A DNA stretch of 64,000 bases, from positions 1,922,001 to 1,986,000 of the forward strand of contig NZ_CP022881.1 in the NCBI RefSeq assembly GCF_003491325.1, written 5' to 3'. The position numbers and the translations under genes were made by a program. The notes under the pieces were generated by a model, which ran no database searches, was not told the origin of the DNA, and saw nothing but the letters and a program-made list of their open reading frames with translations. Positions 44 to 40,026 of this stretch are shown here, piece after piece. The stretch comes from Staphylococcus sp. M0911. GTDB lineage: Bacteria > Bacillota > Bacilli > Staphylococcales > Staphylococcaceae. The stretch's first letter is position 1; each line of letters starts with the position of its first letter.

Positions 44-210
44 AAAAAGCCCACAACCACATGGGTTGCAGGCTATATAATGGAGTCGGCGAGAGTTCAT
101 TAATGCCTTTATCTATTCGTGTAGAAATCGCTATAAGTATTGTCATAGCAATGTTTAAATTGTCTAATAAGTTGTGTGTAAAATATTAAAATTGAAAAAA
201 CACAAGATAT
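44..210. repeat. Distal long direct repeat with outer att copy (island A end)
   Basis: This stretch matches 2517-2683 without gaps at a constant offset of 2473 bp, with scattered substitutions. Inside it, 73-94 resembles the 22-bp att core at the tmRNA 3' end (16780-16801) but differs at two positions (gtc for gac, gaga for ggga). I read it as the outermost junction of a tandem pair of islands that both used ssrA. The changed core suggests it is an old or differently derived junction. Confidence 0.8.
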
Positions 211-393: not shown

Positions 394-717
394 TTATTTT
401 ATGATACTATTTATTAATTCAACATATAACTCACTATTTTTATAACCCTCTAATATATCATTTACTTGTCTCATTGGAATTTCTGGTACTTCTCTAATGT
501 TTTCCAATTTTGTTTTGAATTGTTTTTTTGTTACTTGCTCTTTATTAGTAGCCAATTGGAACAAGTAAGAATCTAACATATTAATTTCTTTATATGAATA
601 CATATATCTTAATAACATTAAATCTCTAGTTTTTAAGTTTGGCGCTAGTTCTTCTTGTAATTGTTCTATTGATTGTTTCATTAATAACAATCTTGTTTCT
701 AATTCTTCATTATTCAT
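394..717 (-). CDS. Small helical cytosolic protein, putative immunity protein
   Basis: 107 residues, predicted almost entirely helical (LETRLLLMKQSIEQLQEEL...), with no signal peptide or membrane segment. Its size and all-helical look recall bacteriocin immunity proteins of the four-helix-bundle kind, but I see no defining motif. It lies 15 bp downstream of a secreted-protein gene on the same strand, so the two are probably one transcript. The same arrangement occurs at 35130-35961, where a 117-residue helical protein follows a homologous secreted protein. The immunity role is inferred from that repeated pairing. It could equally be an antitoxin or chaperone for the secreted partner. Confidence 0.55.
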   Translation of the reverse strand: MNNEELETRLLLMKQSIEQLQEELAPNLKTRDLMLLRYMYSYKEINMLDSYLFQLATNKEQVTKKQFKTKLENIREVPEIPMRQVNDILEGYKNSELYVELINSIIK

Positions 718-732: not shown

Positions 733-1257
733 TTATATTAATGCTTGACCAACTTGAGAAACCCAAAATCCTATGCTTCTTACAGTAGAATCTTTAATAC
801 CGGTTCCCATCAAAGCTTGCGAAACTTGTCCTTGTACATTTCCCCATGTAGCTTCTTCTTGTTTTAATACATTATTCAATGCAGGATTTACATATTTATC
901 CCATCTTTTTTCCAATGATTTTCCGGCACGAGGACTGATTTCTTTTACACCATTAAACACAGCTTTTTTATTTTTAATCATAGCTTTTATGACTTTTTTA
1001 ACAGCGTATGATCCTCCAACTCTTTCAGATGTGCCTTCTTTTAAATTAGATGGTAAGTTATCAATAGTTTTTTGGCTAGTTCTTTCTGGATTTTTAAAAA
1101 ATCCATCTAATATTTTATCATCTGTATTTAATTTTTCAGTAATTTGCTTAATATTTGTATTATCGTTATTTTGGGTAGTATCTTGCACACTTGCTATAGG
1201 TGTCGCAGTTGAAAGGAATAAAGCGCTCATTATCAATGTTCCAAGTATTTTACTCAT
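733..1257 (-). CDS. Secreted bacteriocin-like protein (VGG-x-Y-x-x-KK family)
   Basis: 174 residues. Residues 1-24 form a signal peptide (MSKILGTLIMSALFLSTATP, then IASV). A polar linker rich in N, D and T runs to about residue 80. A C-terminal domain then begins RVGGSYAVKKVIKAMIKNKK and ends with a hydrophobic helix (GFWVSQVGQALI). Both leader and C-terminal domain align with the frameshifted protein at 35130-35596. An in-frame TAA directly precedes the ATG, so the start is fixed, but no clear Shine-Dalgarno is visible. An 8-codon reading frame overlaps the start and might couple translation. It lies at the cargo end of island A, next to a small helical protein. A secreted antibacterial protein is the best guess; a secreted virulence or adhesion factor is the alternative. 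Confidence 0.6.
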   Translation of the reverse strand: MSKILGTLIMSALFLSTATPIASVQDTTQNNDNTNIKQITEKLNTDDKILDGFFKNPERTSQKTIDNLPSNLKEGTSERVGGSYAVKKVIKAMIKNKKAVFNGVKEISPRAGKSLEKRWDKYVNPALNNVLKQEEATWGNVQGQVSQALMGTGIKDSTVRSIGFWVSQVGQALI

Positions 1258-1926: not shown

Positions 1927-2454
1927 TTACAACTCTTTTAAATCACTATCATTCTTTTCATCGTCTTGACCAATGCTATCAATAAAAACTGGTGTCGCCA
2001 TATTCATATCTATTTTATCAGTAAAGATACTAAGATAACGCCCAAGTAGGTCACGGGCTTTCAAACGACTACTCGCTTTTATAGGTACCTCAACTAATTC
2101 CACATGTTCGTTATATACGAGGTTCATGTGTCCTGTGTCGGGGTTCTTTTCAAATGAACTTTTCTTAACTACAACTTCTTTCACTTCAGTTTCCTCACTC
2201 ACTGCTGAACGTGATAGCAAGTATAGTGTTTCTTTCGCAGTTAAAATGGTATCGTCTATAATCTCATCTTTCTTGCTTTGAATATAGTCTTTTACTTTCT
2301 CATTGCGCAATAATCTTCTACCTGTTACATGTGTGCTATTTGAGCTATAACCGTTATTTATAGCGTTTTGAGTGCATTTTCCACTCATTCTTAATACTCT
2401 CTTTTCTACTTGTTTATTCGTCCTAATAATCACTACGTCTCTCTCAAATGACAT
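1927..2454 (-). pseudogene. terS: Degenerate terminase small subunit (TerS), island A
   Basis: The frame is open for 175 codons. From about residue 30 it aligns with the intact TerS at 6646-7215: GYSSNSTHVTGRRLLR versus GYSANSAHVTGCRLLK, then DDTILTAKETLYLLSRSAV, the EVKEVVVK stretch and VYNEHVELVEVPIK. The N-terminus, where TerS has its DNA-binding start (ELTAKQARFVNEY), is scrambled here, and the real start is missing. It therefore probably cannot direct DNA packaging. The C-terminus reads TPVFIDSIG, a different tail type from the intact copy. It is the main evidence that island A was a pac-type SaPI. Confidence 0.75.
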
Positions 2455-2516: not shown

Positions 2517-2683
2517 AAAAAGCCCACAACCACATGGGTTGCAGGCTATATAATGGAGACGGCGGGAGTTCATTAAAGCGTTTATCTATTCATGTATAAC
2601 TCGCTATAAGCATTGTCATATCAACGTTTAAATTGACTAATGAGTTGTGTGTAAAATATTAAAATTGAAAAAACACAAGATAT
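2517..2683. repeat. Inner long direct repeat with att copy (island B distal end)
   Basis: Gap-free match to 44-210. Positions 2546-2567 are identical over 22 bp to the tmRNA 3'-end core at 16780-16801. This is the distal attachment site of island B and also the boundary with island A. Integration at 16780 and a copy at 2546 define an island of about 14.2 kb, the normal SaPI size. Confidence 0.9.
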
Positions 2684-6538: not shown

Positions 6539-6645
6539 CTACTCCTCAAACCCACCAATATTATCAATAAACACTGGTGTCGCCACATTTAAGTCTACCT
6601 TTTCTGTAAACAAGCTATGGTAACCAATAAATTTATCATTTAACT
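6539..6645 (-). pseudogene. 3' fragment of a second, different terS
   Basis: Directly after the stop of the intact TerS, the minus strand continues with GYHSLFTEKVDLNVATPVFI and then DNIGGFEE-stop (TAG 6541-6539). This is a TerS C-terminus of the TPVFID type seen in island A (FTDKIDMNMATPVFIDSIG), not the NVPIFINIGEWDGDDEE type of the intact gene. It marks a past recombination in which one terS replaced the front of another and left its tail behind. Confidence 0.8.
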
Positions 6646-7553: not shown

Positions 7554-7555
7554 TG

Positions 7556-8083
7556 TTACACCACTTTTACATATGTAGATTGGTGATATGCATTTACTCG
7601 TGCAATCTTACTGTTTTCAATTGCTGTATTTCTTTGTTTTTGACGTTCTGAACGTTGTTTAATACTTTCTCGGTACAAATCAACCTGTAAGCGTTCAATG
7701 ACGTTGTAGGGCTTATATCGTCCATTTGAACGCATATATTTTACAACTTGCTTCTTCTCTTTTTCTGTATAAAAGGTAAGTACATTTTTCAGTAATGCCA
7801 TATTACTTATAGATCGTTTTTTATAGTTTTGTAATCTTGCCTTTGTTTCAATAATTTGGATAACTAGTTTTTCAATTGGATATGAGACAGACACAACCCC
7901 CATTATTTCATCACATGTTGTGGTCGACGCACTCATATGGTACATACTTTCAATTTGGAATTCACACATCTTAATTTTTTTATTAATAAATGCTGGGTTA
8001 AATTGCGTTAATAGTTGATACTCAGATAATTTATTGTCGCCATTACGATAATATAAACAATTCTTCGTTTTAAGCAGTTTCAT
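7556..8083 (-). CDS. Conserved island packaging-operon protein, unknown function
   Basis: 175 residues, basic and helical, with a C-terminal charged helix (RESIKQRSERQKQRNTAIEN). A broken homolog lies at 38206-38693 in island C, with matching segments NPxxINxKIKxxxxQIxSxYH and KYMxxxGxxxxxNVIERLxxD. GGAGTG precedes the ATG. It is in the same operon as the sigma-like gene and terS. Genes at this position in SaPIs interfere with helper phage late transcription or packaging, but I cannot assign this one to a named protein. Confidence 0.75.
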   Translation of the reverse strand: MKLLKTKNCLYYRNGDNKLSEYQLLTQFNPAFINKKIKMCEFQIESMYHMSASTTTCDEIMGVVSVSYPIEKLVIQIIETKARLQNYKKRSISNMALLKNVLTFYTEKEKKQVVKYMRSNGRYKPYNVIERLQVDLYRESIKQRSERQKQRNTAIENSKIARVNAYHQSTYVKVV

Positions 8084-8103
8084 ACGTTCACTCCTATAAA
8101 GAG

Positions 8104-8126
8104 AGCCTACCCAAATTGGATAGGCT
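8104..8126. terminator. Terminator-like hairpin inside the packaging operon
   Basis: AGCCTA pairs with TAGGCT, with an internal CCAAATTGG palindrome and a T-run on the plus side. It lies between the 217- and 175-residue genes and may reduce downstream expression or stop antisense transcripts. Confidence 0.5.
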
Positions 8127-8135
8127 ATTTTTGAT

Positions 8136-8789
8136 TTAAGCGTTACGGAACACTTCGTTATACTTACTTTGAATGTTAATAATTTCTATATCGCCATCAC
8201 TATCTTTGATGACTGGTTGCCCGTTATTTTGTAACCCAAACTGTCTTAAAACATTATAGTTATACTCTAATTTTTGATATTCTTCATTATTTCGATATGG
8301 ATAAATTACCTTTTCTACCAATACATCAAAGTAAGGTTTTAACCTTACATTTTCATCTTCAGTAAGACGACTTTCTATCGCTTTTTTATAGATATTAAGT
8401 TCATATACATTAGTGGTTTTAGGATTGGCATTATAAACAAGATTAAATAGTTCTTCTGCATCAATTAAATTTACTTTCGCCTCTATGTCTTGACGTTTCA
8501 ACATTTCAACTTGTGGATTCTCATATGAAGATTCTTTCTCTTTTTGTTGGATTTCTACTATTTTTTCTTCATGTTCATCTAATAATATTTGTCCTAATTC
8601 TTTGAATTTAGATTGTAGGCTCAAAGCCTTATTATCCATTTTATTTTTAATAACATCCGTTTTATAGCCTTGTCTAATTAATGATTTCGTTTCTGTTATT
8701 AGATCTTCAAAATCTCCTAACAAATTTCTATAACGTCTATCATTAAAATATACATCCCACGTATCACCCGTGATTGTTGTAGTTGTCAT
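8136..8789 (-). CDS. Island protein of 217 residues, unknown function
   Basis: A predicted long alpha-helical protein. Residues about 25-110 are highly charged coiled-coil-like sequence (FEDLITETKSLIRQG..., EEKIVEIQQKEKES), and the C-terminal half is more globular. It is the second gene of the packaging operon in island B. By position and helical character it could act in capsid-size redirection or scaffolding, as CpmA/CpmB do in other SaPIs. I see no recognisable motif, so this is only a possibility. No copy survives in islands A or C. Confidence 0.65.
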   Translation of the reverse strand: MTTTTITGDTWDVYFNDRRYRNLLGDFEDLITETKSLIRQGYKTDVIKNKMDNKALSLQSKFKELGQILLDEHEEKIVEIQQKEKESSYENPQVEMLKRQDIEAKVNLIDAEELFNLVYNANPKTTNVYELNIYKKAIESRLTEDENVRLKPYFDVLVEKVIYPYRNNEEYQKLEYNYNVLRQFGLQNNGQPVIKDSDGDIEIINIQSKYNEVFRNA

Positions 8790-8819
8790 TTATAAGTACC
8801 TCTTTCTTTAGTTTTTGTT

Positions 8820-9161
8820 TTACACTTCAATTCGTTTCAAAGCTTCATAGCGTTTCATACTGCCATCAGCTAATTTCTTAATACTTCTCATCGCTTGTTG
8901 CTTTTCTTGTTCTGTCGTAATGGTGTAATAACCACGTTCACTAGGTTTATAACTGCATCCGATAGGATAGCCATAATCATATACTAATGAATTGATTACT
9001 CTTCGTAACCATCGTTCATTGCTTGAATTATATTCATATCCCAATTGATTTAAGATTTTAGTTTTAGTAATATATTTATTGGACGTATTTTTTATCACAT
9101 TGAAAACTTGCAGGTGTTCGGTGGGTAAATGATACGTCTCTTTTTCTGCGATACTTTCCAT
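8820..9161 (-). CDS. Winged-helix-like island protein, first gene of packaging operon
   Basis: 113 residues. Residues 20-90 read like a winged helix: helix FNVIKNTSNKYITKTKILNQ, recognition region ERWLRRVINSLVYDYG, then a wing YPIGCSYKPSERGYYTI. A helical tail follows. It is the first gene after the 535-bp control region that holds a LexA-like palindrome, so it may be expressed early upon SOS or helper induction. A DNA-binding regulator is likely; the target is unknown. Confidence 0.65.
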   Translation of the reverse strand: MESIAEKETYHLPTEHLQVFNVIKNTSNKYITKTKILNQLGYEYNSSNERWLRRVINSLVYDYGYPIGCSYKPSERGYYTITTEQEKQQAMRSIKKLADGSMKRYEALKRIEV

Positions 9162-9337
9162 TTCTACACCCCTTTCTTTTAATTATTTTATACCTAAATT
9201 ATACCATTTTCACTGACCTAAAACAAACTTATGTTCGCTTTGTAGCACGCTTTGTCAGTTGTTTAGCTTATCTCATATAAAACTTATAAAACAACATTAT
9301 AAAATTAATAAGGAGCCTTTTAGATCATTCAAATACA

Positions 9338-9349
9338 GAACTTAAGTTC
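9338..9349. promoter_or_regulatory. LexA (SOS) box-like palindrome
   Basis: GAACTTAAGTTC fits the GAAC-N4-GTTC core of the Gram-positive SOS box, and the flanks (A...G) give 13 of the 14 consensus positions or close to it. It sits beside the probable promoter of the packaging operon. Confidence 0.65.
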
Positions 9350-9661
9350 GATATAATAGGGCGAACAAATGGCGAACGAATTTAACTTTTAGGCCTATAC
9401 CAAAAACACAAACTTTAGCTTGTATTAGCGTTAACAAAGTTCGCACACCTTGCACAAATCTTGCCATTTTTTCAATTCTCAAAGACTGTATACCTTCCGA
9501 TTTTAAAAGCTAACACCTTTATATAACCTTATTATTTTCAAAGCCATAAAACAGCTCAATATCAACATTTCACACTTTTTTTAATTTCGCACACCTATCT
9601 ATTAACTCACTATTGTTGCAACCTTTACATTTTAAAACTTCTATACCTTATACTTTTACAT

Positions 9662-9687
9662 TAGGAGCCACACACCACGTGTGACTC
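9662..9687 (-). terminator. Hairpin after the replication operon
   Basis: On the minus strand GGAGTCACAC pairs with GTGTGGCTCC with one mismatch, immediately after the stop of the 213-residue gene. The U-run is weak. Confidence 0.5.
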
Positions 9688-9696
9688 CATATTTAA

Positions 9697-10338
9697 TTAC
9701 TTATTCAAACTGTAATAAGATGACTTCAACTCAGTTAACTTACGTTCTAAAGCCTTGTAATCCTCTTGTGTAGCCTTCTCATCTTGTACAAACTCAGTTA
9801 CTAATTTTAATCCCTCAACTAACTCTGGTGCTGGTTCATTGATTCCCGTAGCTATCTGATACAACATTTCAATATTCGCTATCACATCAGTATTACTCGA
9901 TTGAATGCCCTCAAGTGTATCAGTATCAAATCCATTTTCTAGGTACTCAAACACATCACTATTATTTGATTCTGCATATGTTTGTAATCCATACATAAAA
10001 TATTCATCTTCAAACAAATGACTAGCCATCATATCACTAATAGAAAGCTGTTTACCGTCATGTAATTCATAACCTACATAATGCCCCTCTATGCTTCTTA
10101 TAAGCCCCTCAGTGTGCTTAGGTGACGCTAATTCAAATGATTGCCTTACTTTACAATCTTTAATATATACATGACCGAATAACTTCCCGTTCATCATCAC
10201 ATAAACCATATCAAATGGATCATTGTATAACTTAAAGCAACATGGTTGCACTTTACTATGTTCTAATAATCCTGTGTAGTACCTTAGTAACGTGCCTGCT
10301 CGTGTTTCAAATTGGTTTACGATAGTTTCTACGTTCAT
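9697..10338 (-). CDS. Island protein of 213 residues, unknown function
   Basis: A soluble acidic protein (for example DTLEGIQSSNTDVIANIEML) with a lysine/glutamate-rich C-terminal helix. It contains no signal peptide, membrane segment or nucleotide-binding motif I can identify. It is the last gene of the replication operon, downstream of the primase. Island-encoded proteins at this position are common in SaPIs and mostly unstudied. I can only say it is intact and probably co-expressed with rep and pri. Confidence 0.65.
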   Translation of the reverse strand: MNVETIVNQFETRAGTLLRYYTGLLEHSKVQPCCFKLYNDPFDMVYVMMNGKLFGHVYIKDCKVRQSFELASPKHTEGLIRSIEGHYVGYELHDGKQLSISDMMASHLFEDEYFMYGLQTYAESNNSDVFEYLENGFDTDTLEGIQSSNTDVIANIEMLYQIATGINEPAPELVEGLKLVTEFVQDEKATQEDYKALERKLTELKSSYYSLNK

Positions 10339-10339
10339 G

Positions 10340-10672
10340 TTATTTACTCCTTTTTATATAATTTAAATAATTCTTTAATCTAGCTAGCACTAACTCAAAA
10401 CTTCCTGTAGCTATAACTTTGTAACTTGTCCTTTTATTCGATTTAGGTATATAACTCTCACGCCATGCAGTCCAATTGTTATCAATATATTCTAAATAAA
10501 CCGTTGATACATAACTTATTGAACAATAATATACTTCATTAGATATACCAGTTATTAAGCCGATGCTTTGGGCTTGTTCATCTAAATTGTAATTCTCTTT
10601 AACGGCTTGCACTTCTAACTGTCGCCTCCCAGTCTCTCTCAGTAAATACATCGCCGTTTTTATTATCTCCAA
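10340..10672 (-). CDS. Small island protein downstream of primase
   Basis: The frame is open for 110 codons, but its first 73 bp overlap the primase end. An internal GTG at 10612 lies 12 nt after GGAGG and would give 91 residues (VQAVKENYNLDEQAQSIGLI...). The region YYCSISYVSTVYLEYIDNNW looks like a beta-rich fold. It ends one base before the next gene. The start is uncertain and the function unknown. Confidence 0.55.
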   Translation of the reverse strand: MEIIKTAMYLLRETGRRQLEVQAVKENYNLDEQAQSIGLITGISNEVYYCSISYVSTVYLEYIDNNWTAWRESYIPKSNKRTSYKVIATGSFELVLARLKNYLNYIKRSK

Positions 10673-11402
10673 TCAATACACGTAACGGCTCAATATCTAC
10701 GTTACATTGAATCGCGTAACTTACTGCTTTATATAAATCATTGTTCCTATATTCACTTTGACCGTCTATAATGCGTTGATATGCACGTTTGCCTTCTCCA
10801 CCTTTGCCAACTCTTACGTGACTAAAACTATAATTAGGTAGTGCTCGTCGAATGGAATACGGCTCTAATACTTGTTGTTTGTAATTACCAGCTTTAGAAA
10901 ATATTCGTTTCTCAAACTCTCCTTGATACTTAGTTACATTGACACCGTTATGAGTGTATATACCTTTAGCTGTTTGACTACCTGCAAGCACAAAATAATT
11001 ATTGGGATGTGCTTTGATATCAACAGATGGTAAATAACCTATCTTCTGTCCGTATTCGATATTGTCATGCTTTTTGAATATGATATGTTTCCCACCACTT
11101 GCCGTTGTCTGTACTAATGTATTTTGTGCATTGGTAACAAGTTCTTCGTAATATGGTATTTGTTTCAAACTAACGAAACCATTCTTACCATCTTCATGAT
11201 CTACATCAATGTCGATACACCATACACCTCGTGTTAATACGCCCAATACATTGGTTTGATGATAAATATTAGAATGATATTCAATGAATTCATCGGTAAT
11301 ATCTATATCAGCAAATGAAACTGTTGGCTTTTTGTGATTATTAAGTGGTATCACTTCAATATTCTTTTTTAATAATTGTTTTGCTACATGATAACCTGTC
11401 AT
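10599..11402 (-). CDS. pri: Prim-Pol-type island primase
   Basis: 267 residues with the bifunctional primase/polymerase fold: the metal-binding strand GVWCIDIDVDHEDGKNGF (DxD, about residues 64-70) is followed by TTASGGKHIIFKK and VDIKAHPNNYFVLAGSQ, as in replication proteins of phages and SaPIs. It synthesises primers and pairs with the Rep helicase encoded immediately upstream. The 175-bp gap between them holds the iteron-rich origin. The C-terminus (TERDWEATVRSASR) is the usual end of this primase C-terminal region. It is intact. Confidence 0.85.
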   Translation of the reverse strand: MTGYHVAKQLLKKNIEVIPLNNHKKPTVSFADIDITDEFIEYHSNIYHQTNVLGVLTRGVWCIDIDVDHEDGKNGFVSLKQIPYYEELVTNAQNTLVQTTASGGKHIIFKKHDNIEYGQKIGYLPSVDIKAHPNNYFVLAGSQTAKGIYTHNGVNVTKYQGEFEKRIFSKAGNYKQQVLEPYSIRRALPNYSFSHVRVGKGGEGKRAYQRIIDGQSEYRNNDLYKAVSYAIQCNVDIEPLRVLIGDNKNGDVFTERDWEATVRSASR

Positions 11403-11414
11403 TGTATACCTCCT

Positions 11415-11577
11415 TTGTAGGTAACCAGTAACTCTAATAACTCTTATTTTTACCTATATCATCAACAATATTAAAAGTTATCGATTAATGTTACAGTAAT
11501 AAGAGTTATATAGGTTACCAATTGTTATAACGCTATTTTTAGAGTTACTATATAAGTTACCTAGAGTTACAGTAACC
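11415..11577. other. Island replication origin with iterons
   Basis: This 163-bp AT-rich region between rep and pri is filled with GTTAC/GTAAC motifs: AGTTACC, AGAGTTAC, AGTAAC and GGTAACC appear at least ten times, on both strands. They form two clusters (about 11418-11456 and 11490-11577) around an AT-rich centre. ATAACTCTTATT (about 11437) is the reverse complement of AATAAGAGTTAT (about 11498). SaPI origins lie next to rep and consist of such iteron sets bound by the cognate Rep, so this is very likely ori. Confidence 0.85.
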
Positions 11578-13194
11578 TTAGTGTTCAGAAATTAGTTCTA
11601 AAGCCATATTAAATAATTCAATGTTTCCAACTTTATGAACTTTTGTATTTACCCCGTCTATTTTCTTTTGATTATTGATACTAATGCCAATTTTCCTCAT
11701 GTCTTCTTTAGCGTTCTTGTAACGTAAACTTGAGTAATCTTGTTCTATCAAGCGTTGTAAAGTTTCATCGCCTGCTAATATAAAGCCCTGTTTTGATAAC
11801 AATCTGATCATAGTAATTTGAGTTTCAGTCAATTCATCTTCATTAAAATAATACTTGAGCGTTACATCCTTAAATTTAAATTCTCTTCCATTTTCTTTTA
11901 AATATTCCAAACTCGCTATTAAGAATGACACTGATGCACTAACTGAAATGTTGCCATTAGGTTGTATATAATCCCAATAAGGCTTAAAAATCTGATAACG
12001 TTCTTCATCAGTTTCATTTATGGGTCTATCCTTTAGCGATATTTTAACTGTTCGCGTTGTATTGGCTGTAATTTCACCAGTATCGACACTTTCATTTGTA
12101 TCTAGTATTAATACGGCGTTATTTTTAAATGTAAATGCGTTTCTTCCAATGCCCCGTCCAGAAATTGTTTCACCTGTTGCTATTTTTCTTAATATGCGCA
12201 TCATTTGTTTAGTGATTTCACCTGTCTCATTAGCATGAGCTATATCTGCACCGTAAAAATTCATCCACTCATTTGCCGATTCAAAACCACCAGAAATAAG
12301 GCTATCAAAATTAACTTTGTTCACTGTCATCAATTTTTCAAATGTAGCCATAAACAAACCTTTTCCAGAACGACCAAAATCTTTAAGTAAAAACCACTTT
12401 TCTGCTTGTATCAATTTCATTTTTCGATACATTGTATAAGCGTGTGTTAGCATTAAATTGTTTTTACTCTTTTCATTGTCAGTTACTAAATCAAAGAAGT
12501 TTCTGGGTATTTCTAAATTGATATCTTTAATATCTACGTCATATTTAATTGAGTAGAGCTCATCACTTTTTAATTTTTGTTCTGTAAGCGTTAAATTTTG
12601 GCAATCATATACCCAGTCATTACCTGCAATGCAATATGGATAAATCTTAAAGTTATGAGTTACATTTAAATGTTCGCGGTAAAGCTCTAACATCACATCT
12701 AAGAAATCATCAATATAGTACTTGTTATCAACTGGATAGGTTAACGCAAAGTTTGTATTGTCTATCACTTCATACTGGTTATTCTTAACTATAATAAAGC
12801 AGTCTAGTTGTTTTGAATAAATGACCCTGTCAGAAATTAGATCAGCTATAAAACGTGCATAGTTATGAAAATGACTGGTTTTAAACGTAGATTGTTTTTC
12901 TTCTTCACCATTTTTATCAACAGTCTTGATATTGACGGTACCATAAACAAGCCCAATTTCTTTTGGTTTTATGGTATAATCTAAAGTAAGATTACTAATA
13001 TAATCACCTGCAACATTATCTTTTTCTCGGTGATATACATTTCCTTTGTTATTAAAAACTTGTCTATCTGTTGAGATTGATGCAAAGTTTATACGCTTGC
13101 TTATCTCTTTTATCCTAGATAGATTAATTGTTGAAACATAATCTAATTTAGAATGAAATTCGAAATGTTTTTTATAAAGTGATACTTCGTCCAT
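11578..13194 (-). CDS. rep: Island Rep: replication initiator helicase
   Basis: 538 residues. A superfamily 3-type ATPase core is seen: Walker A in FLLKDFGRSGKGLFMATFEK (about residues 267-286), Walker B-like FYGADIAHANETGE, and sensor AVLILDTNESVDTGEI. The C-terminal part (from about 440, EDELTETQITMIRLLSKQGF) is a winged-helix-like domain that in SaPI Rep proteins recognises the iterons. The predicted origin starts directly after its stop codon. Rep forms a hexameric helicase that starts autonomous island replication once the repressor is lifted. Confidence 0.88.
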   Translation of the reverse strand: MDEVSLYKKHFEFHSKLDYVSTINLSRIKEISKRINFASISTDRQVFNNKGNVYHREKDNVAGDYISNLTLDYTIKPKEIGLVYGTVNIKTVDKNGEEEKQSTFKTSHFHNYARFIADLISDRVIYSKQLDCFIIVKNNQYEVIDNTNFALTYPVDNKYYIDDFLDVMLELYREHLNVTHNFKIYPYCIAGNDWVYDCQNLTLTEQKLKSDELYSIKYDVDIKDINLEIPRNFFDLVTDNEKSKNNLMLTHAYTMYRKMKLIQAEKWFLLKDFGRSGKGLFMATFEKLMTVNKVNFDSLISGGFESANEWMNFYGADIAHANETGEITKQMMRILRKIATGETISGRGIGRNAFTFKNNAVLILDTNESVDTGEITANTTRTVKISLKDRPINETDEERYQIFKPYWDYIQPNGNISVSASVSFLIASLEYLKENGREFKFKDVTLKYYFNEDELTETQITMIRLLSKQGFILAGDETLQRLIEQDYSSLRYKNAKEDMRKIGISINNQKKIDGVNTKVHKVGNIELFNMALELISEH

Positions 13195-13253
13195 GTAGTC
13201 ACCCTTTCGATAATATTCTGTTTTTGTTAATATATTAATTAGTATTTATTTAA

Positions 13254-13562
13254 TTAAATACTTTGTACATTTGCGTTACTTTCGCTTTGGTCGGTGGAGA
13301 GTGACGCTTTTTCTATTTCATGAAACTTATTCATTAAACTGTCTAATTCTTCCAAATAAGTAAGCATTAATTCTGTAACTTGTTCGTTGTGAATTCTATG
13401 TTCGTTATACGCTAGACCGTAATTAACCACTTCTTCTTCAGTTTTTAACGATCTCTTCGTAAATCGTCCATCTACAAACCATGTATGTGTAGTCGCTACA
13501 TCTTCCAACTTTCCTTTTACTATCTCTATATTGCACATTAAATTTCTAATCTCCCAATTCAT
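13254..13562 (-). CDS. DUF1474 family island protein
   Basis: 102 residues beginning MNWEIRNLMCNIEIVKGKLE, with the block YGLAYNEHRIHNEQVTELML that is typical of DUF1474 proteins found in nearly all SaPIs. It is helical and cytosolic. It shares a one-base junction with the upstream gene and is co-transcribed with rep. It lies in the early operon controlled by the master repressor; its biochemical role is not established. Confidence 0.8.
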   Translation of the reverse strand: MNWEIRNLMCNIEIVKGKLEDVATTHTWFVDGRFTKRSLKTEEEVVNYGLAYNEHRIHNEQVTELMLTYLEELDSLMNKFHEIEKASLSTDQSESNANVQSI

Positions 13563-13946
13563 TTATAATTCCTCCACTTCAATATTTCCCACAATGTAAT
13601 CTAATGCCCACTCTAACATTCCAATCACGTGTCCTTTGCGATCTGTTGTATGTTTATGTTCACCTTTTTCGTCTATGACACTATAACGGTAAACGTGTTG
13701 TGTTTCTTTCATGACATCACTTAGCGTCATTGTTACTTCATCAAGAATTAAAAATGCTTCATCTTCAAAATCTAATTCAGCAAGAATATTGAACAATCCA
13801 TTATGAACTAACTTTAAAGCATATTCATAAAATGCTTTATCCTGATAATGATAGTCCTTATCGGATTTAAACTTATCTTCCTCGTATAATACTACTTCTA
13901 ATATTTTAACCACTTTTGATAATTGATATTTTTGTTTGATTTCCAT
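13563..13946 (-). CDS. Island early-operon protein, unknown function
   Basis: 127 residues, acidic. The N-terminus is helical and the central region resembles a small alpha/beta unit (DEAFLILDEVTMTLSDVMKE). The end VIGMLEWALDYIVGNIEVEEL is conserved-looking in SaPI early genes. It is tightly packed between the 67-residue gene (1-bp gap) and the DUF1474 gene (adjacent). No membrane segment is present and I recognise no function. Confidence 0.65.
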   Translation of the reverse strand: MEIKQKYQLSKVVKILEVVLYEEDKFKSDKDYHYQDKAFYEYALKLVHNGLFNILAELDFEDEAFLILDEVTMTLSDVMKETQHVYRYSVIDEKGEHKHTTDRKGHVIGMLEWALDYIVGNIEVEEL

Positions 13947-13947
13947 C

Positions 13948-14151
13948 TTAACTACCTACTTTTTTCTTATTTTTAATTTCTGTAATTTTTGATAAATCCA
14001 TTTCTAAACACGCAACTTGAACATCTTTACTAACATCAGGAAAGTACTGTCCAAATACTTTTGGCGGTATATTTAACATTAAATTATGTTGAGTATCTTT
14101 AATGTTGTGCCAGCCAACTACTGTTTTTGTAATAATAACTTGTTTTCGCAC
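13948..14151 (-). CDS. Small island protein, 67 residues
   Basis: It starts with GTG at 14151, preceded by AGGAGAG at good spacing. The sequence has a beta-rich N-terminus (RKQVIITKTVVGWHNI) and a basic tail (KITEIKNKKKVGS). Its beginning overlaps the end of the 57-residue membrane protein gene by 34 nt, so the two are probably coupled. Unknown function in the early operon. Confidence 0.65.
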   Translation of the reverse strand: MRKQVIITKTVVGWHNIKDTQHNLMLNIPPKVFGQYFPDVSKDVQVACLEMDLSKITEIKNKKKVGS

Positions 14152-14291
14152 GTTGTAATCTCTCCTGTTAAATTAAATCCATAAGTTACCATCATGCCGT
14201 ACACACTAAAAGCGACATACATGTTAGATATTGCTAGTAATAATATTGTTAACAATGAAACTAAGCAGATATAAGTTAAGTACATTTTCAT
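14118..14291 (-). CDS. Small membrane protein, 57 residues
   Basis: The ATG at 14291 overlaps the stop of the upstream HTH gene (ATGA), and GAGGGG precedes it. The protein begins MKMYLTYICLVSLLTILLLA and has one clear transmembrane helix at residues 4-24, perhaps a second at 27-43, then a short polar tail (TCENKLLLQKQ). It fills an apparent gap between the regulator and the early genes, and its coupling on both sides supports translation. The function is unknown. Confidence 0.6.
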   Translation of the reverse strand: MKMYLTYICLVSLLTILLLAISNMYVAFSVYGMMVTYGFNLTGEITTCENKLLLQKQ

Positions 14292-14515
14292 TGCCTTGAC
14301 CCCTCTACTTTAATTTTTGATGAAAATAACTCATCAATTGGCATGTCATACATTTCTGAAAGAATCTGACACTCATTTAAATTAAATATTGCTTTACCAC
14401 TTTCCTTTAACTGGTAGCGTTGTGGACTAATACCAAGTTTGCTAGCAACTTTCTTTTGCGTGTCACCTTTTTCTTTTCTAGTAATGTATAACATTGGATA
14501 AGTTAGTTTTGTCAT
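14288..14515 (-). CDS. Xre-family HTH protein (second early regulator)
   Basis: 75 residues from the ATG at 14515, chosen because AGGAG lies 9 nt before it; a GTG at 14524 is too close to the ribosome site. The HTH region is EKGDTQKKVASKLGISPQRY, followed by KESGKAIFNLNECQILSEMY and the common tail MPIDELF. Small Xre proteins of this type lie in the rightmost operon of SaPIs and act as activator, excisionase-like or Cro-like factors. It follows the other small HTH gene by 28 bp, with a 15-bp operator-like repeat in the gap. Confidence 0.75.
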   Translation of the reverse strand: MTKLTYPMLYITRKEKGDTQKKVASKLGISPQRYQLKESGKAIFNLNECQILSEMYDMPIDELFSSKIKVEGSRQ

Positions 14516-14533
14516 TCTAATCACTCCTAAAGG

Positions 14534-14841
14534 AAACTTTATGCTACTTATTAATTAAAAAAATATCATCAATAGTAATGTCTTTGATACCATTTTCTAT
14601 TAATTTATTTTTTATAAACACCTTCTCTGAATCTTTAAATGGTGTTATTCCTCTTTCTTTATTTCTATAAGCAGTAACTGAAATTTTTAAATTATTAGCC
14701 ATTTGATTTTGTGTTAAACCAATATACCTTCTGTAATTGCTTACTTTATTATTCATCAAAACCACCTCCTTGAAACTTTATGCTACAAGCATATAACCTC
14801 TCCTTTTACTTGTCAACACTTTTTATGATACTTTATGAAAC
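14534..14841. promoter_or_regulatory. Operator repeats of the island regulatory switch
   Basis: GAAACTTTATGCTAC occurs identically at 14534-14548 (between the two small HTH genes) and 14772-14786 (upstream of the Cro-like gene). A variant, ATACTTTATGAAAC, lies at 14828-14841 in the divergent promoter region. Such repeats are the expected binding sites of the master repressor or its opposing regulator. Confidence 0.6.
14544..14756 (-). CDS. Cro-like HTH regulator divergent from the repressor
   Basis: 70 residues from the ATG at 14756, placed 8 nt after AAGGAGG. The HTH is SNYRRYIGLTQNQMANNLKI and then SVTAYRNKERGITPF, similar to Cro/phage regulators. It is transcribed divergently from the longer repressor gene, the lysogeny-switch arrangement of SaPIs (str versus stl). 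Its own upstream region carries repeated GAAACTTTATG motifs, so it is likely repressed by the neighbour. Confidence 0.75.
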   Translation of the reverse strand: MNNKVSNYRRYIGLTQNQMANNLKISVTAYRNKERGITPFKDSEKVFIKNKLIENGIKDITIDDIFLINK

Positions 14842-14913
14842 TTATAATTCCACTAAAGCTAAATTAATGATAGAATACTAACATAAATATTCATCATTAA
14901 GGAGGCGTTTAGT

Positions 14914-15561
14914 ATTTCACAACAATCAATTTTAGCTAATAATATAAAAAAAATTAGAAAAGAATTAGGTCTTACGATGGAAGAGTTTGGTGAAAAATTC
15001 ACACATAAAGCTCATAAATCTATTGTTTCAAAATGGGAAAAAGGGCTAACAAAACCAAGTAATGAAAGATTAAAAGAGATTGCTAAGTTAGGGAATATAA
15101 GTGTACATCAATTAATATACGGTGATTTTCTAGGGTTGTTAGAAAGTATTGCAAACGAGGAAATAAAGTTTATTTTAGACACAAATATGTGTGCTAACAA
15201 TAGTTTTCTAGCTAATGAATTATCATCTTCAGTTTCTCGTTTTATATTTTCCTATTATGAAAGAGGTAAAGAAAATTTTAACGAAAATTTATTTAGAAAA
15301 TTGTTACAACATTATTTACAATTAGAATTAGATTTAGGAAATAGAGATCTTGAATCTTTAACATATTTCGCTTATCAAAGAACAATAAATGCGCAAGAAT
15401 TAGTAGTTGACTATTATGAAGATTCAAAAGCAAAAGAATTTTTAAAAGATGAGAGCATCGATGAATTCCTTACGACAATATCTAACAAATACTTTGATCT
15501 ATTAGAATACATTGATGACTATAGAGTTAAACATGATCTAGAGAAAATTAGTGAAGAGTGA
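14914..15561 (+). CDS. Master repressor (Stl-like) with probable ATT start
   Basis: I place the start at ATT 14914, 8 nt after the strong site AAGGAGG (14899-14905). From there the frame encodes SQQSILANNIKKIRKELGLT and then MEEFGEKF, the first half of an Xre helix-turn-helix. The first ATG (14977) would start inside the HTH and leave no ribosome site. With ATT the protein has 215 residues: HTH at about 9-65 and a large helical C-terminal domain that in SaPI repressors binds helper-phage inducer proteins. It faces away from the Cro-like gene and overlaps the integrase start. Binding to an inducer would lift repression of the early operon. Confidence 0.8.
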   Translation: MSQQSILANNIKKIRKELGLTMEEFGEKFTHKAHKSIVSKWEKGLTKPSNERLKEIAKLGNISVHQLIYGDFLGLLESIANEEIKFILDTNMCANNSFLANELSSSVSRFIFSYYERGKENFNENLFRKLLQHYLQLELDLGNRDLESLTYFAYQRTINAQELVVDYYEDSKAKEFLKDESIDEFLTTISNKYFDLLEYIDDYRVKHDLEKISEE

Positions 15562-15566
15562 ATACA

Positions 15567-16673
15567 ATGTCATATAGCTTAAACTTATCCCACAACATAT
15601 ATAAAGACGCTAAACGTGGCACTTACTATTTCCGTATCACTTACTATGACAAAAGCAATACTCGTAAGTACATAACACGTAAGGGGTTTAAACAACGTAA
15701 AGATGCAGTAAAGAAATGTAACGAAATGATGGACGAATTAGAGGGAGTCGGACACCTTAATAGGTTACCTTTTGACAAGCTCGTTGAAGAATATATAGAC
15801 TGGTATTCAGCGCGTCGAAAGACATCAAGTGTAAAAGCATTAAAGACACATACCAATAACCATTTGCTACCTTATTTTAAATCTATGGACGTGTTTAAAA
15901 TGACTACACAAGATGTGATGAAATTTCAGAATAAGAAGTTAAAAGAGGGGCATTCTGGAGACTACTTAAAGAAGATGCATGTATATTTAGTATCATTACT
16001 GAATCATGCAATGAAGTTTCATGAGTTAAAACAAAATGTTGCATCTCTTGTAGGGAATTTTGAAATAGAATCACAGAAACGATTGAATTATTGGACGTTA
16101 GAACAATTCAATCAATTCTATGATGCGCTTGCTACACAACAACAAAAATTATTTTTTAAACTATTGTTCTACTCTGGAGCAAGAAAGGGCGAAATCAGAG
16201 CTCTCACATGGCGCGATATTAACTTTGATGATGACTTTATCCATATAAACAAAACGGACTATCACGGTGAAGTGACAGCCCCTAAAACGAAATCAGCCAT
16301 ACGTGATATATATTTGCCTACTCACATGATGTATGACATCAAAGATTATTTAATTTGGTATAAAGAGAATAACATATACAAGGACGACTATGTATTGTTT
16401 GGTACATTCTATAAAGCTTACAGCGAGTCTACTATTGATCGTTGGTTTACTAACGCATTAAAAGTGTTGGATGAGCAATTACCAAACGGACAAAATTTCC
16501 CTAGAATCGTTATACACGAGTTAAGACATAGCCATGCATCTATGCTAGTTAATCTAGGGGCTAGTGTAATGATTATAGCTCAGCGTTTAGGTCACAGCGA
16601 TACGACAGAAGTGTATAACCGATATGGTCATTTATATCCTAGTACACAGAAAGAAATAGTTAAATACTTATAA
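15567..16673 (+). CDS. int: Tyrosine-recombinase integrase of the island
   Basis: About 368 residues from the ATG at 15567; a GTG at 15558 overlaps the repressor stop and is the alternative. The N-terminal arm-binding and SAM-like domains are followed by the catalytic domain with Arg in FYSGARKGEIRALTW, the box HELRHSHASM and LGHSDTTEVYNRYGH, which contains the nucleophile Tyr. The full R-H-R-H-Y set is present. It inserts the island into the 3' end of ssrA, about 105 bp downstream. A terminator and 11-bp-spaced repeats follow it. Confidence 0.92.
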   Translation: MSYSLNLSHNIYKDAKRGTYYFRITYYDKSNTRKYITRKGFKQRKDAVKKCNEMMDELEGVGHLNRLPFDKLVEEYIDWYSARRKTSSVKALKTHTNNHLLPYFKSMDVFKMTTQDVMKFQNKKLKEGHSGDYLKKMHVYLVSLLNHAMKFHELKQNVASLVGNFEIESQKRLNYWTLEQFNQFYDALATQQQKLFFKLLFYSGARKGEIRALTWRDINFDDDFIHINKTDYHGEVTAPKTKSAIRDIYLPTHMMYDIKDYLIWYKENNIYKDDYVLFGTFYKAYSESTIDRWFTNALKVLDEQLPNGQNFPRIVIHELRHSHASMLVNLGASVMIIAQRLGHSDTTEVYNRYGHLYPSTQKEIVKYL

Positions 16674-16676
16674 AGT

Positions 16677-16700
16677 CACTACCAACTAAAATTGGTGGTG
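16677..16700 (+). terminator. Terminator of int
   Basis: CACTACCAA pairs with TTGGTGGTG (one G-T pair), followed by TCTTTTTG. It lies 4 nt after the integrase stop. Confidence 0.85.
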
Positions 16701-16712
16701 TCTTTTTGTATC

Positions 16713-16741
16713 CTGTGCATTTTCTGTGCACTATCTGTGCA
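16713..16741 (+). repeat. Three CTGTGCA repeats in helical phase by attR
   Basis: CTGTGCA begins at 16713, 16724 and 16735, each exactly 11 bp apart, so all face the same side of the helix. They lie between int and the attachment core. Arm-type integrase sites or excisionase sites are the likely role. Confidence 0.65.
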
Positions 16742-16779
16742 CTCAAAAATGAAAAGCCCACAACCACTAAGGTCGCAGA

Positions 16780-16801
16780 CTATATAATGGAGACGGCGGG
16801 A
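16780..16801. repeat. Attachment core at the ssrA 3' end
   Basis: 22 bp identical to 2546-2567. It covers the last bases of tmRNA (its acceptor stem and CCA end) plus 8 flanking bases. After integration the island regenerates a complete tmRNA 3' end. Confidence 0.9.
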
Positions 16802-33514: not shown

Positions 33515-33586
33515 CCCCTTGTAGTGTAATGGATAACACATAAGATTCCGGTTCTTAGAATAGGGGTTCGATTCCCTTCGAGGGGG
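33515..33586 (+). tRNA. tRNA-Arg (anticodon CCG)
   Basis: 72 nt. Acceptor CCCCTTG pairs with CGAGGGG, the D stem is GTGT/ACAC, the anticodon stem TAAGA/TCTTA with loop TTCCGGT (anticodon CCG), and the T arm AGGGG-TTCGATT-CCCTT. No CCA is encoded. Its 3' end is the attachment site of island C and is duplicated at 39960-39977. Confidence 0.93.
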
Positions 33587-33590
33587 CTCA
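33573..33590. repeat. Left attachment repeat of island C (tRNA 3' end)
   Basis: 18 bp (TCCCTTCGAGGGGGCTCA) identical to 39960-39977. It covers the tRNA-Arg 3' end plus four bases. Confidence 0.92.
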
Positions 33591-35129: not shown

Positions 35130-35596
35130 ATGAAGTTAAGTAAGAGTATAGGATCATTAGTTTTAAGTGCGGTTTTATTAACGTCTATTTCCCCTTTAGC
35201 AAGTGCAGAAGAACAAGTTCAAACGCAAAATAGTAATGTTCAACAATCTCAAGATAACAAGTCAAATCAACAAACTAATGAAAACAAAAAAAATGTACAA
35301 ACCTATGTAGGCGGGATATATCTTACTAAAAAACTATTAAGGGTATATTAAGTAATAAAGGTAAATTAGTAGGTGCAGTTAAAACTGTTACTGGCAATCA
35401 AAAAGCAGCAAATGCTGTTTCAAAAAATTTCGACGCAATTGATTCAGAACTACGCCCTTTGTTAAAATTATCTGAAGTCCCAGCTAACTCAGTTGCTGAT
35501 GCAGTGTATAGAGGATTAGTAGATGCTGGTATTGACAAAGACCTCGTTGGTCAAGTTAAAGTTGCAGTAAAAGAAGGTATTAATTTACTAGTTTAG
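35130..35596 (+). pseudogene. Frameshifted secreted bacteriocin-like protein (copy 2)
   Basis: The first 73 codons start MKLSKSIGSLVLSAVLLTSI, a signal peptide ending SPLASA, then a Gln/Asn-rich linker and YVGGIYLTKK. The frame breaks in a run of six A's at 35328-35333. With one more A it continues TIKGILSNKGKLVGAVKTVT to KVAVKEGINLLV and stops at 35596, giving 155 residues. The restored protein aligns with the secreted protein at 733-1257 over leader and C-terminal domain (VGGxYxxKKxIK, DxGIxxxxV). It is followed at once by a helical immunity-like gene. The single-base defect may be recent loss, phase variation, polymerase slippage or a sequencing error. Confidence 0.7.
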
Positions 35597-35607
35597 GAGT
35601 GAAAATA

Positions 35608-35961
35608 ATGTTTGAAAATAAAGATGATATAAGGTTACTATATCAAGCAGTTTCAGAACTAGCAGAAATCGTAGGACATCATCCTTACAATACAAAATCA
35701 ATAAGTCTTTTATGTTTAGACTTAGGTATCCCTCTAGATGAATATGAAAAAGTATTTATGGCATTTACAAGGTTGTCTAATAACAAAAACACTGATGATA
35801 TGAACATTGAAGAATTTAAATCAATATTAATTGAAAATGTAACTAAATATGACGAAATAACTGACTCTCAAGCTTTAAGATTTATAGAAGGCTACGCTAG
35901 AAATTATATACCTGAATTATTACCATATGCAGAAAAGTTATATCTTGATTTAAGAGTATAA
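35608..35961 (+). CDS. Helical immunity-like protein (copy 2)
   Basis: 117 residues from the ATG at 35608, 8 nt after AGGAG (35595-35599), which itself overlaps the stop of the secreted-protein gene. It is all-helical and acidic (LLYQAVSELAEIVGHHPYNT, then helices ending LLPYAEKLYLDLRV). Like the protein at 394-717 it follows a VGG-family secreted protein on the same strand. It is intact though its partner is broken, as expected when an immunity gene is retained. Assignment rests on context. Confidence 0.55.
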   Translation: MFENKDDIRLLYQAVSELAEIVGHHPYNTKSISLLCLDLGIPLDEYEKVFMAFTRLSNNKNTDDMNIEEFKSILIENVTKYDEITDSQALRFIEGYARNYIPELLPYAEKLYLDLRV

Positions 35962-38693: not shown

Positions 38694-38797
38694 ATAATCA
38701 CACCTTTTTCAATGGATTTGACGCTTAAAATGATTAAAAAAAGGGATAAACTGAGTTACCCCCTTTCATGAAAAATTTATCCGCGTTGCAAACGAAA

Positions 38798-38808
38798 GCC
38801 CCCCGCCG
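38798..38808 (-). other. Candidate cos site core
   Basis: The minus strand reads CGGCGGGGGGC, which matches, as I recall, the cos core of staphylococcal phages such as phi12/phiSLT and of the cos-type island SaPIbov5. It is a striking GC-rich patch (38755-38850) in AT-rich DNA, with a GTCAAA...TTTGAC inverted repeat nearby. It lies directly downstream of the capsid-like gene, as expected for a packaging start. Confidence 0.7.
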
Positions 38809-38873
38809 GTACCCGTCAAAAATAATATTTGACCCAAAAGGTAGGGGGGAATAAATTTTATTGTATAAATTAT

Positions 38874-39682
38874 TTATTTAATATTAATGATTCGTAATAA
38901 CTCTGGCACAATTTTGATATCAAACACATAGTTCAATGCAAATTGGTACACGCCTCTTAATGCTTGTTTCTTTTTATTGTACATAATAGGCTCATATTTA
39001 GCATATATAGCATGCCCAAAGTCTCCTATAAAGATATCTTGTGCATCATCTGTAACTACTACGTGAGATACATTAAATAGCTTAGTTAAATCACCTGCAA
39101 GTCCACCTAATCCCATCTGTGCTAACTCTTTGATGAGTTTATCATGATGTTCTGTGTTCATTATGATAGATACATTACGTCTAAATGTTTGTGGTATATC
39201 TTTTATCGCTTATTAAATACCATCATACATTGTAGTGTTACTTACTTCTTTAATGCCTTGATTATATAGTGATAAGTCTTGGTTATCTTTATCAATCAAT
39301 CCACTCGCATTGTTCTTATCTAAGAGTAATGTTGTTTCATATGTGACACACTCATTAATAAAGATCTCTTTAAGTAGGTCGAGCCATGCACTACACTGTC
39401 TGATACTTCTGTATATATGTGTCCCTCGCGTCTATAAAAGTATTTGCTACTACCATTAAGTGATAGCTCAATACCATTAGTAGCTAACTTATCTTTAATG
39501 TATGTTAGTGATGGTATAGATTCAACATGTTCATCATCTGTAATAGTAATCACATCACGTAATGTTTGAGGTAGCTCAGTATTAACTAATAACTCTTTAA
39601 ATACTTCTATACGTGCAGTCGGTAACTCTTGAATATTAAAGTTATTCTCATTACTAACTAATTGCTTTGTTAATATACCTAC
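38874..39682 (-). pseudogene. ccm: Broken HK97-fold capsid-like gene (ccm type)
   Basis: Three conceptual pieces join into one protein. The first is GILTKQLVSNENNFNIQELP to TEVSDSVVHG. After a frameshift near 39370 comes WLDLLKEIFINECVTYETTL to NTTMYDGI. Then, past two TAA codons at 39210-39215, comes AIKDIPQTFRRNVSIIMNTE to IVPELLRIINIK. The content (LLLDKNN, VVVTDDAQDIFIGDFGHAIY) is that of phage major capsid C-terminal domains. In cos-type SaPIs a capsid homolog, Ccm, redirects helper capsids to small size. The N-terminus is missing at the junction with the integrase relic. Confidence 0.75.
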
Positions 39683-39817: not shown

Positions 39818-40026
39818 AAACACTGCCTTAAAATAGAGTAATGATTTAATTAGTTTATAGAGAAAATGATTGGCAAAAGTATGTAAAATACAAATAGATA
39901 AAATTACTGATTTAATAGTATTTTAAAAATGAGCCAAACACTATTTTAATTAAAAATCATCCCTTCGAGGGGGCTCATATATGTTAAATACAAAGACTGC
40001 TTATGCAGTGAATCAAATTAACAGAA
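39818..40026. other. Right end of island C
   Basis: Non-coding AT-rich DNA that contains the right attachment repeat (39960-39977). Nothing else is recognisable. Confidence 0.5.
39960..39977. repeat. Right attachment repeat of island C
   Basis: TCCCTTCGAGGGGGCTCA, identical to the tRNA-Arg 3' end at 33573-33590. It defines an island of about 6.4 kb after decay. Confidence 0.92.

What the first reader, a model, noticed from the sequence alone, without database searches (positions are those of the whole stretch)
35130..35961. A second, diverged copy of the same cassette in an unrelated island
The frame-restored protein shares leader and C-terminal domain with the copy at 733-1257 (VGGxYxxKKxIK, then xxGIxxxxV) and is also followed by a helical gene. 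Two islands at different att sites, one pac-type and one cos-type, carry it at the same relative (cargo) end. This suggests a mobile cassette family spread by phage-inducible islands.
Basis: partly seen in the sequence, partly recalled or inferred. Interest (0 to 1): 0.88.

Follow-up and report, generated by a model that had tools for sequence, protein, structure and literature searches.

The report
Mobile staphylococcal bacteriocin-like toxin-immunity cassette
The window holds two distant relatives of one mobile gene pair, most likely a secreted protein that harms rival bacteria and a small protein that protects its owner; in the second copy the secreted gene is broken but the protector is intact, a pattern that recurs in other staphylococci.

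Summary
At 35130-35596 lies a secreted-protein gene split over two frames; searched apart, both pieces match a profile of intact relatives (E 4e-16, 4e-27), and an intact 117-residue helical gene follows at 35608-35961. The copy at 733-1257/394-717 is homologous in both genes (profile-profile E 7e-8 and 2e-5; no column shuffle reached either score). The copies sit at different attachment sites (tmRNA, tRNA-Arg). Best explanation: a bacteriocin-like antibacterial toxin plus cytosolic immunity protein. Reasons: the secreted domain is also the C-terminal tip of an RHS polymorphic toxin with its own partner gene; distances among secreted domains and among partners agree; in 108 related genomes 13 of 14 full-length secreted genes have a full-length partner (the exception is a distant relative), while 43 of 56 full-length partners lack an intact secreted gene. 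The cassette is mobile (synonymous divergence 0.12 against 0.89-1.66 for neighbouring core genes), but islands are only one vehicle: small plasmids of five genera carry it too. Neither gene reaches a curated Pfam or NCBIfam cut-off. Not shown: killing, target, or kinship with EntV-type bacteriocins. The claimed 'same cargo end' is not supported.

The parts
35130..35351 (+). first piece of the broken secreted gene (copy 2): Sec-type signal peptide, linker and start of the conserved domain
   Evidence: ORF; profile match 35130-35342, E 4e-16
35330..35596 (+). second piece of the same gene in another frame: the conserved C-terminal domain (described only, not joined)
   Evidence: profile match 35330-35593, E 4e-27;
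35608..35961 (+). intact partner gene of copy 2, 117 aa, predicted immunity protein (an in-frame GTG lies at 35599)
   Evidence: ORF; homologues; profile; six-helix model mean pLDDT 80
35596..35599 (+). GGAG ribosome-binding-like site overlapping the stop of the secreted gene
   Evidence: sequence
733..1257 (-). intact secreted protein of copy 1, 174 aa; helical C-terminal domain, about residues 78-173
   Evidence: ORF; homologues; model
394..717 (-). partner gene of copy 1, 107 aa, predicted immunity protein
   Evidence: ORF; alignment, profile
33515..33587 (+). tRNA-Arg(ccg), attachment site of the element around copy 2
33573..33590 (+). att repeat, tRNA side
   Evidence: 18 nt, 0 mismatches
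39960..39977 (+). att repeat, far side
38758..38888 (.). DNA resembling the TerS/HNH region of cos-type staphylococcal phages
73..94 (+). third, imperfect tmRNA-type att copy (2 mismatches)
2546..2567 (+). tmRNA-type att copy; copy 1 lies between this and 73-94
16780..16801 (+). att copy at the tmRNA gene
15558..16673 (+). integrase of the tmRNA-linked island
1927..2454 (-). terminase small subunit between the first two att copies, next to copy 1

Best explanation
Both copies are toxin-immunity cassettes for competition between bacteria. The first gene makes a Sec-secreted protein: signal peptide, variable linker, then a conserved cationic all-helical domain of about 95 residues that ends in a hydrophobic helix. 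That domain is the toxic part and probably acts on the envelope of related Gram-positive cells, by membrane damage or through a receptor. The second gene makes a small acidic cytosolic helical protein that protects the producer. Because the protector is useful without the weapon, the toxin gene often decays while the immunity gene is kept. Copy 2 is such a case: toxin gene broken, immunity gene intact. Shown by computation: homology of both genes, pairing, one RHS fusion, one-sided decay, purifying selection on the partner, horizontal movement. Signal peptides are read by eye. Inferred: toxicity, neutralisation, the membrane as target.
For: (1) The domain is the C-terminal tip, straight after the Rhs core (TIGR03696, E 9e-24), of a 1444-residue RHS protein followed 33 nt later by a partner-type gene; the tip alone scores E 2e-7 with a profile built without it. 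(2) Partners of the RHS-tip group are homologous to those of copy 1 (probability 97.4, E 1.5e-11) and copy 2 (probability 81.3, E 1.2e-5); three secreted-against-partner controls give probabilities of 0.15-0.65. (3) Distances of secreted domains and of partners agree over 28 complete pairs: r 0.895, 0 of 5000 permutations; within copy-1 type (6 pairs) 18 of 5000, within copy-2 type (8 pairs) 2 of 5000. (4) In 108 family genomes 13 of 14 full-length secreted genes have a full-length partner; of 56 full-length partners 13 have an intact secreted gene, 9 a broken one and 34 none found (hand tally, checked). (5) dN/dS of copy-2-type partners 0.06-0.48 over 15 pairs, 0.08 between the window's copy and the orphan in the same genome. 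(6) Net charge +5 to +11 over the last 100 residues of six secreted-domain proteins, -2 and -9 for the two window partners. (7) Small plasmids of 3.3-7.6 kb in five genera carry the pair.
Against: No activity data. Only one RHS fusion was found, in a draft genome of 83% completeness. One full-length but distant secreted relative (G079:C83, 170 aa, E 1e-5, 1.7e-8) has no partner of these families beside it; its neighbour is a divergently oriented 91-residue gene that looks membrane-bound by eye. No curated toxin or immunity family and no solved fold matches. The best 17-residue hydrophobicity is moderate (0.8-1.3), so a transmembrane pore is not evident. The secreted gene is constrained too (0.21 in the one intact pair; 0.16-0.48 for the window's two pieces), so selection does not by itself set the partner apart. 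Linked descent alone gives part of the distance agreement.
Confidence: 0.78

Rival explanations
1. It is a member of the EntV / streptococcin A-M57 / corynicin JK class of Sec-secreted modular bacteriocins, processed by an extracellular protease to an active C-terminal domain.
For: Same plan: EntV is a 170-residue prepropeptide with a signal peptide and an active 68-residue helical C-terminus with a hydrophobic last helix (passages); A-M57 is plasmid-encoded (passages); ours are mostly 150-180 residues, C-terminally helical and often on plasmids. The C. difficile plasmid relative has two cysteines in its last 100 residues.
Against: No EntV entry (7ROA) among sequence matches at E 10 with three profiles or in the Foldseek rows shown (50 of 134); 0 Cys in the last 100 residues of the copy-1 protein and two intact copy-2 relatives, whereas EntV needs a cysteine pair. 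The A-M57 and dysgalacticin plasmids were not held, so no direct alignment.
Confidence: 0.25
2. A secreted peptide signal and its cytosolic receptor (quorum sensing), mobile with the islands.
For: Secreted protein plus soluble cytosolic partner whose distances agree.
Against: The domain tips an RHS protein; the secreted part is a predicted folded domain of about 95 residues, not a short peptide; the window's partners have no match above cut-off to a DNA-binding family; orphan partners outnumber pairs.
Confidence: 0.06
3. A host-directed (animal) virulence factor with a chaperone or regulator.
For: Some copies lie at SaPI-type att sites in staphylococci.
Against: Relatives sit in a kimchi Bacillus, a biogas-sludge C. 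difficile and in Catenibacterium; partners are kept without the secreted gene; RHS fusion.
Confidence: 0.05
4. An island maintenance (toxin-antitoxin) or anti-phage module.
For: Two genes, mobile elements, att sites.
Against: The first gene has a Sec-type signal peptide; PADLOC gives only weak matches (E 0.017-0.039); the 'antitoxin' survives alone in 34 of 56 places.
Confidence: 0.04

Closest known systems
Polymorphic toxin-immunity systems, free-standing toxin cassettes with a signal peptide (Zhang et al. 2012, PMC3482391; start of abstract and passages seen)
   Same: C-terminal domain shared between an RHS protein and stand-alone Sec-secreted proteins; small gene directly downstream; lone immunity genes; pairing by subtype
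   Different: The cassette genes match no named family above cut-off in the Pfam and NCBIfam scans; in the staphylococcal genomes searched it was seen free-standing, on plasmids and in island remnants
EntV (EF1097), streptococcin A-M57, corynicin JK bacteriocins
   Same: Signal peptide, propeptide, helical C-terminal part, plasmid carriage of A-M57
   Different: No detectable sequence or fold match here; no cysteine pair in the staphylococcal proteins examined
Cytosolic immunity proteins of pediocin-like class IIa bacteriocins (recalled)
   Same: Small, soluble, helical, next to the bacteriocin gene
   Different: No Pfam or fold match here; the secreted protein is much longer and Sec-dependent
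EsaD/EsaG and TspA/TsaI of the S. aureus type VII system (PMC9484751, PMC10941976; passages seen)
   Same: Lone immunity genes in strains without the toxin (reported for esaG)
   Different: Other secretion route, other proteins

Membership tests
Polymorphic toxin-immunity system | toxin domain at the C-terminus of varied delivery proteins | tested here: met
   Sec-secreted free-standing form and RHS fusion; one RHS fusion only
Polymorphic toxin-immunity system | small immunity gene directly downstream | tested here: met
   13 of 14 full-length secreted genes in 108 genomes; in the distant loci all printed secreted ORFs but L101 (second domain in the same frame) have one; L102 and L104 printed no secreted ORF
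Polymorphic toxin-immunity system | orphan immunity genes | tested here: met
   34 of 56 full-length partners have no secreted gene found at E 0.001; two of the 34 show a faint remnant (G078, G049)
Polymorphic toxin-immunity system | toxicity neutralised by the partner | not testable with these tools
   needs the bench
EntV / A-M57 class bacteriocins | signal peptide, propeptide, helical C-terminal active part | tested here: inconclusive
   architecture alike; processing not testable
EntV / A-M57 class bacteriocins | sequence or fold homology to EntV (7ROA) | tested here: inconclusive
   not among matches at E 10 nor in the Foldseek rows shown; presence of 7ROA in the copies was not verified
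EntV / A-M57 class bacteriocins | cysteine pair for the disulfide needed for EntV activity | tested here: not met
   0 Cys in the last 100 residues of the copy-1 protein and two intact copy-2 relatives; the C. difficile plasmid relative has 2
SaPI/PICI cargo | lies between att repeats of an island | tested here: met
   copy 2 between 33573 and 39960; copy 1 between att copies 73 and 2546
SaPI/PICI cargo | element carries its own integrase | tested here: not met
   no integrase among nine ORFs of 34.4-39.2 kb scanned; not every small ORF was scanned; the island next to copy 1 has one

The most novel reading that the evidence does not exclude
An undescribed toxin-immunity superfamily spread over Bacillota, used as an RHS toxin tip and, far more often in what I saw, as a free Sec-secreted bacteriocin; in Staphylococcus the weapon decays and protective genes are collected, partly at satellite att sites, so that even S. 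aureus can keep a lone immunity gene between smpB and clfA.
Probability: 0.6. Interest if true: 0.72.

Novelty: new variant of a known kind. Interest (0 to 1): 0.62.

Why it matters
If right, a family of 'hypothetical proteins' in many Bacillota becomes testable as a bacteriocin class with its own immunity genes, and phage satellites and small plasmids become carriers of weapons and shields between staphylococcal species. Lone immunity genes, including one in S. aureus, would predict which strains resist which rivals.

Tried and rejected

Rows set aside before the tally: five matches of the first 65 or fewer positions only, in frames of 273-794 residues (G092, G051, G048, G096, G053; not looked at further), G035 (a lipoprotein-like frame) and G036 (a low-complexity frame), the last two looked at; G079:C83 was first dropped and, counted as a full-length distant member without partner, which lowered my figure from 13 of 13 to 13 of 14 and my confidence from 0.80 to 0.78. 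In one search G022 (cut by a contig end), G093 (stops) and G009 (weak) were left out; seven broken loci were not counted as full-length, and G000's orphan and G080, flagged with a stop at the alignment's end, were counted. 'Full-length' means an open profile match over nearly the whole model, start codons not checked one by one. P0032 (frame-shifted end) was left out of the profile and, but is in the alignments.

Print: six protein accessions of the family gave 0 papers, and the listings showed no paper that I recognised as describing it; most subscription papers are not held, and two that matter (Swe 2007 on EntV and corynicin JK, and the DysI paper) could not be read.

Full report
WHAT IS THERE. 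The window is 64 kb of a 2.44-Mb Staphylococcus chromosome (genus inferred from the relatives). The finding's gene is split: an ORF at 35130-35351 with a Sec-type signal peptide, and a second stretch in another frame that ends at 35596; a helical gene follows. A profile of 13 intact family members matches the two pieces apart (E 4e-16 and 4e-27). Close intact relatives exist in S. shinii and S. simiae. Copy 1 (733-1257 with 394-717, minus strand) is intact.

HOMOLOGY IS REAL. Copy-1-type and copy-2-type C-terminal domains: hhalign probability 94.5, E 7.4e-8, score 44.9; 200 column-shuffled profiles reached at most 18.6 and the reversed one 8.1. The full-length comparison, E 1.2e-14, includes signal peptides and one frame-shifted row, so I rely on the C-terminal test. 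Partner families: probability 77, E 1.9e-5, 0 of 100 shuffles. Three secreted-against-partner comparisons, as controls, gave probabilities of 0.15-0.65; one of them (copy-1 secreted against copy-2 partner) just exceeded all of its 60 shuffles (14.4 against 14.1), at probability 0.65.

THE FAMILY IS WIDE. A protein search with copy 1 gave 35 proteins; those with an organism name are from Staphylococcus. With an alignment it gave 137 proteins, among them named ones from Streptococcus, Clostridioides, Enterococcus, Clostridium and Catenibacterium (120 listed). Genome searches: 19 of 398 sampled from the class and 9 of 398 from the phylum, own genome included in both and some matches weak or interrupted. 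Small plasmids carry it: S. capitis 3982 bp, S. epidermidis 3265 bp, S. suis 4285 bp (12 of the 14 records hit), E. cecorum 6244 bp, B. safensis 6643 bp, C. difficile 7624 bp, each with an annotated 96-116-residue gene behind the secreted one, overlapping by a base to 51 nt away.

WHY TOXIN AND IMMUNITY. In genome G591 (unnamed, 83% complete) the domain is the last ~105 residues of a 1444-residue RHS protein, directly after the Rhs core domain, the place where polymorphic toxins carry their toxic tip (Zhang et al. 2012, PMC3482391, passages). The tip alone scores E 2e-7 with a profile that did not contain it. The gene 33 nt downstream belongs to a group whose profile matches copy 1's partners with probability 97.4, E 1.5e-11, and copy 2's with probability 81.3, E 1.2e-5. 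Over 28 pairs chosen for being complete, distances among secreted domains and among partners correlate at r 0.895 (0 of 5000 permutations, maximum 0.313); 14 staphylococcal pairs 0.960 and 14 others 0.785, 0 of 5000 each; within copy-1 type 18 of 5000 and within copy-2 type 2 of 5000 reach the observed value. Common descent of a linked pair contributes to this, so it shows pairing, not binding.

DECAY IS ONE-SIDED. In the same 108 genomes of the family I searched the secreted and both partner profiles. Hand tally: 14 full-length secreted genes, of which 13 are followed by a full-length partner. The fourteenth (G079:C83) is a distant relative of 170 residues, E 1e-5 and 1.7e-8, with none of these partners beside it but a divergently oriented 91-residue gene that looks like a membrane protein. 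There are 11 broken secreted genes, 9 with a full-length partner. There are 56 full-length partners (17 copy-1 type, 39 copy-2 type): 13 with an intact, 9 with a broken and 34 with no secreted gene found at E 0.001; two of the 34 show a faint remnant (G078, G049). Exceptions: in G076 a broken secreted gene has no partner beside it, in G039 both are broken, and seven loci with broken copy-2-type partners were seen (G039's among them). Partner dN/dS over 15 pairs was 0.06-0.48, among genomes with and without a working secreted gene, and 0.08 between the window's copy-2 partner and the lone copy in the same chromosome, where dS is near saturation. The secreted gene is constrained as well (0.21 in the one intact pair, 0.16-0.48 for the window's two pieces), so the break in the window looks recent and the contrast rests on presence and absence, not on rates.

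MOBILITY AND ISLANDS. The copy-2 partner differs from that of S. simiae (G085) by dS 0.12, while clpP and whiA of the same two genomes differ by 0.89 and 1.66; the copy-1 partner differs from that of G030 by 0.23, smpB by 1.78. That is best read as horizontal transfer. Copy 2 lies between 18-nt repeats at tRNA-Arg(ccg), 33573 and 39960, in a 6.4-kb remnant with SaPI-like pieces (PT1028, 2PHSA1 and cos-phage matches), no integrase found. Copy 1 lies between tmRNA-type att copies at 73-94 and 2546-2567; the integrase-bearing island runs from 2546 to 16780. So copy 1 sits in a segment beside the island, and 'same cargo end' does not hold. Just outside the window (G000:C1:1921644-1921997) is a lone copy-2-type partner, 74% identical, facing copy 1. 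In 50 regions, 6 cassettes or lone partners lie at tmRNA/smpB (five genomes), 3 at clpP/tRNA-Arg, and 4 more regions hold TerS-like stretches; 39 regions show none of these. The markers were few, so these are lower bounds. The record called phage ISU935 (S. aureus host) shows a truncated copy-1 gene with an intact partner between smpB and clfA; full-length copy-1 relatives from S. aureus exist as well (P0002).

MECHANISM. The secreted domain of copy 1 is modelled as five helices (pLDDT of ten-residue blocks 76-94 from residue 82 on; the rest is poorly predicted, mean 67.6; model residues are protein residue minus one). It is positively charged (+9 over 100 residues) with a hydrophobic last helix; the partners are acidic, the copy-2 one modelled as six helices, neither with a signal peptide by eye. 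I take it that the secreted domain damages the envelope of related cells and that the partner protects from inside, as immunity proteins of many bacteriocins do (recalled). Membrane action is a guess (about 0.5); toxin-immunity is well supported (0.78).

COMPARISON. It works like a free-standing polymorphic toxin or a class IIIb bacteriocin. It meets the marks of the first that I could test; toxicity itself was not testable. For EntV and A-M57 the plan agrees, the cysteine pair does not (in the staphylococcal proteins examined), and homology could not be shown or excluded. Novelty: a new variant of a known kind, in an undescribed sequence family as far as the libraries and searches named here go.

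Noticed in passing
G000:C1:1921644-1921997 (L062:9644-9997), just before the window's first base: A third, lone copy-2-type partner gene, 74% identical, convergent with copy 1; an IMG/VR contig (L148/L150) carries both genes too.
   Followed up: partly
window 73-94, 2546-2567, 16780-16801: Three tmRNA-type att copies: the tmRNA-linked island seems to have grown in steps, with a terminase gene and copy 1 in the outer segment.
   Followed up: partly
L072:4001-4528; L157 (G030): In S. aureus, between smpB and clfA, a truncated copy-1 secreted gene with an intact partner: a lone immunity gene in a pathogen.
   Followed up: partly
L218 (G079:C83), plus-strand 1299-1811 and 1862-2137: A distant 170-residue secreted relative beside a divergently oriented 91-residue membrane-like gene: perhaps another kind of immunity.
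   Followed up: partly
P0089: A 280-residue protein with the domain at its end and a precomputed PF00553 match in front: perhaps another delivery form.
   Followed up: no
L101 (G177): Secreted domain and a partner-like domain read in one frame of 268 residues.
   Followed up: no
L064:2797-3678 (S. epidermidis pSE45A5-1): The plasmid copy of the copy-2-type secreted gene is split as well, its partner intact.
   Followed up: no
L067:42-197 (S. capitis 3982-bp plasmid): The plasmid with the copy-1-type pair also has a gene annotated as beta-class phenol-soluble modulin.
   Followed up: no
window 2747-4567: Cargo of the tmRNA-linked island looks like a methyltransferase and an iron-siderophore-binding lipoprotein (by eye, not searched).
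   Followed up: no
L022/L081 start: The first ORF of the contig begins with residues MCIRDR, which I recall as a sequencing-adapter artefact.
   Followed up: no
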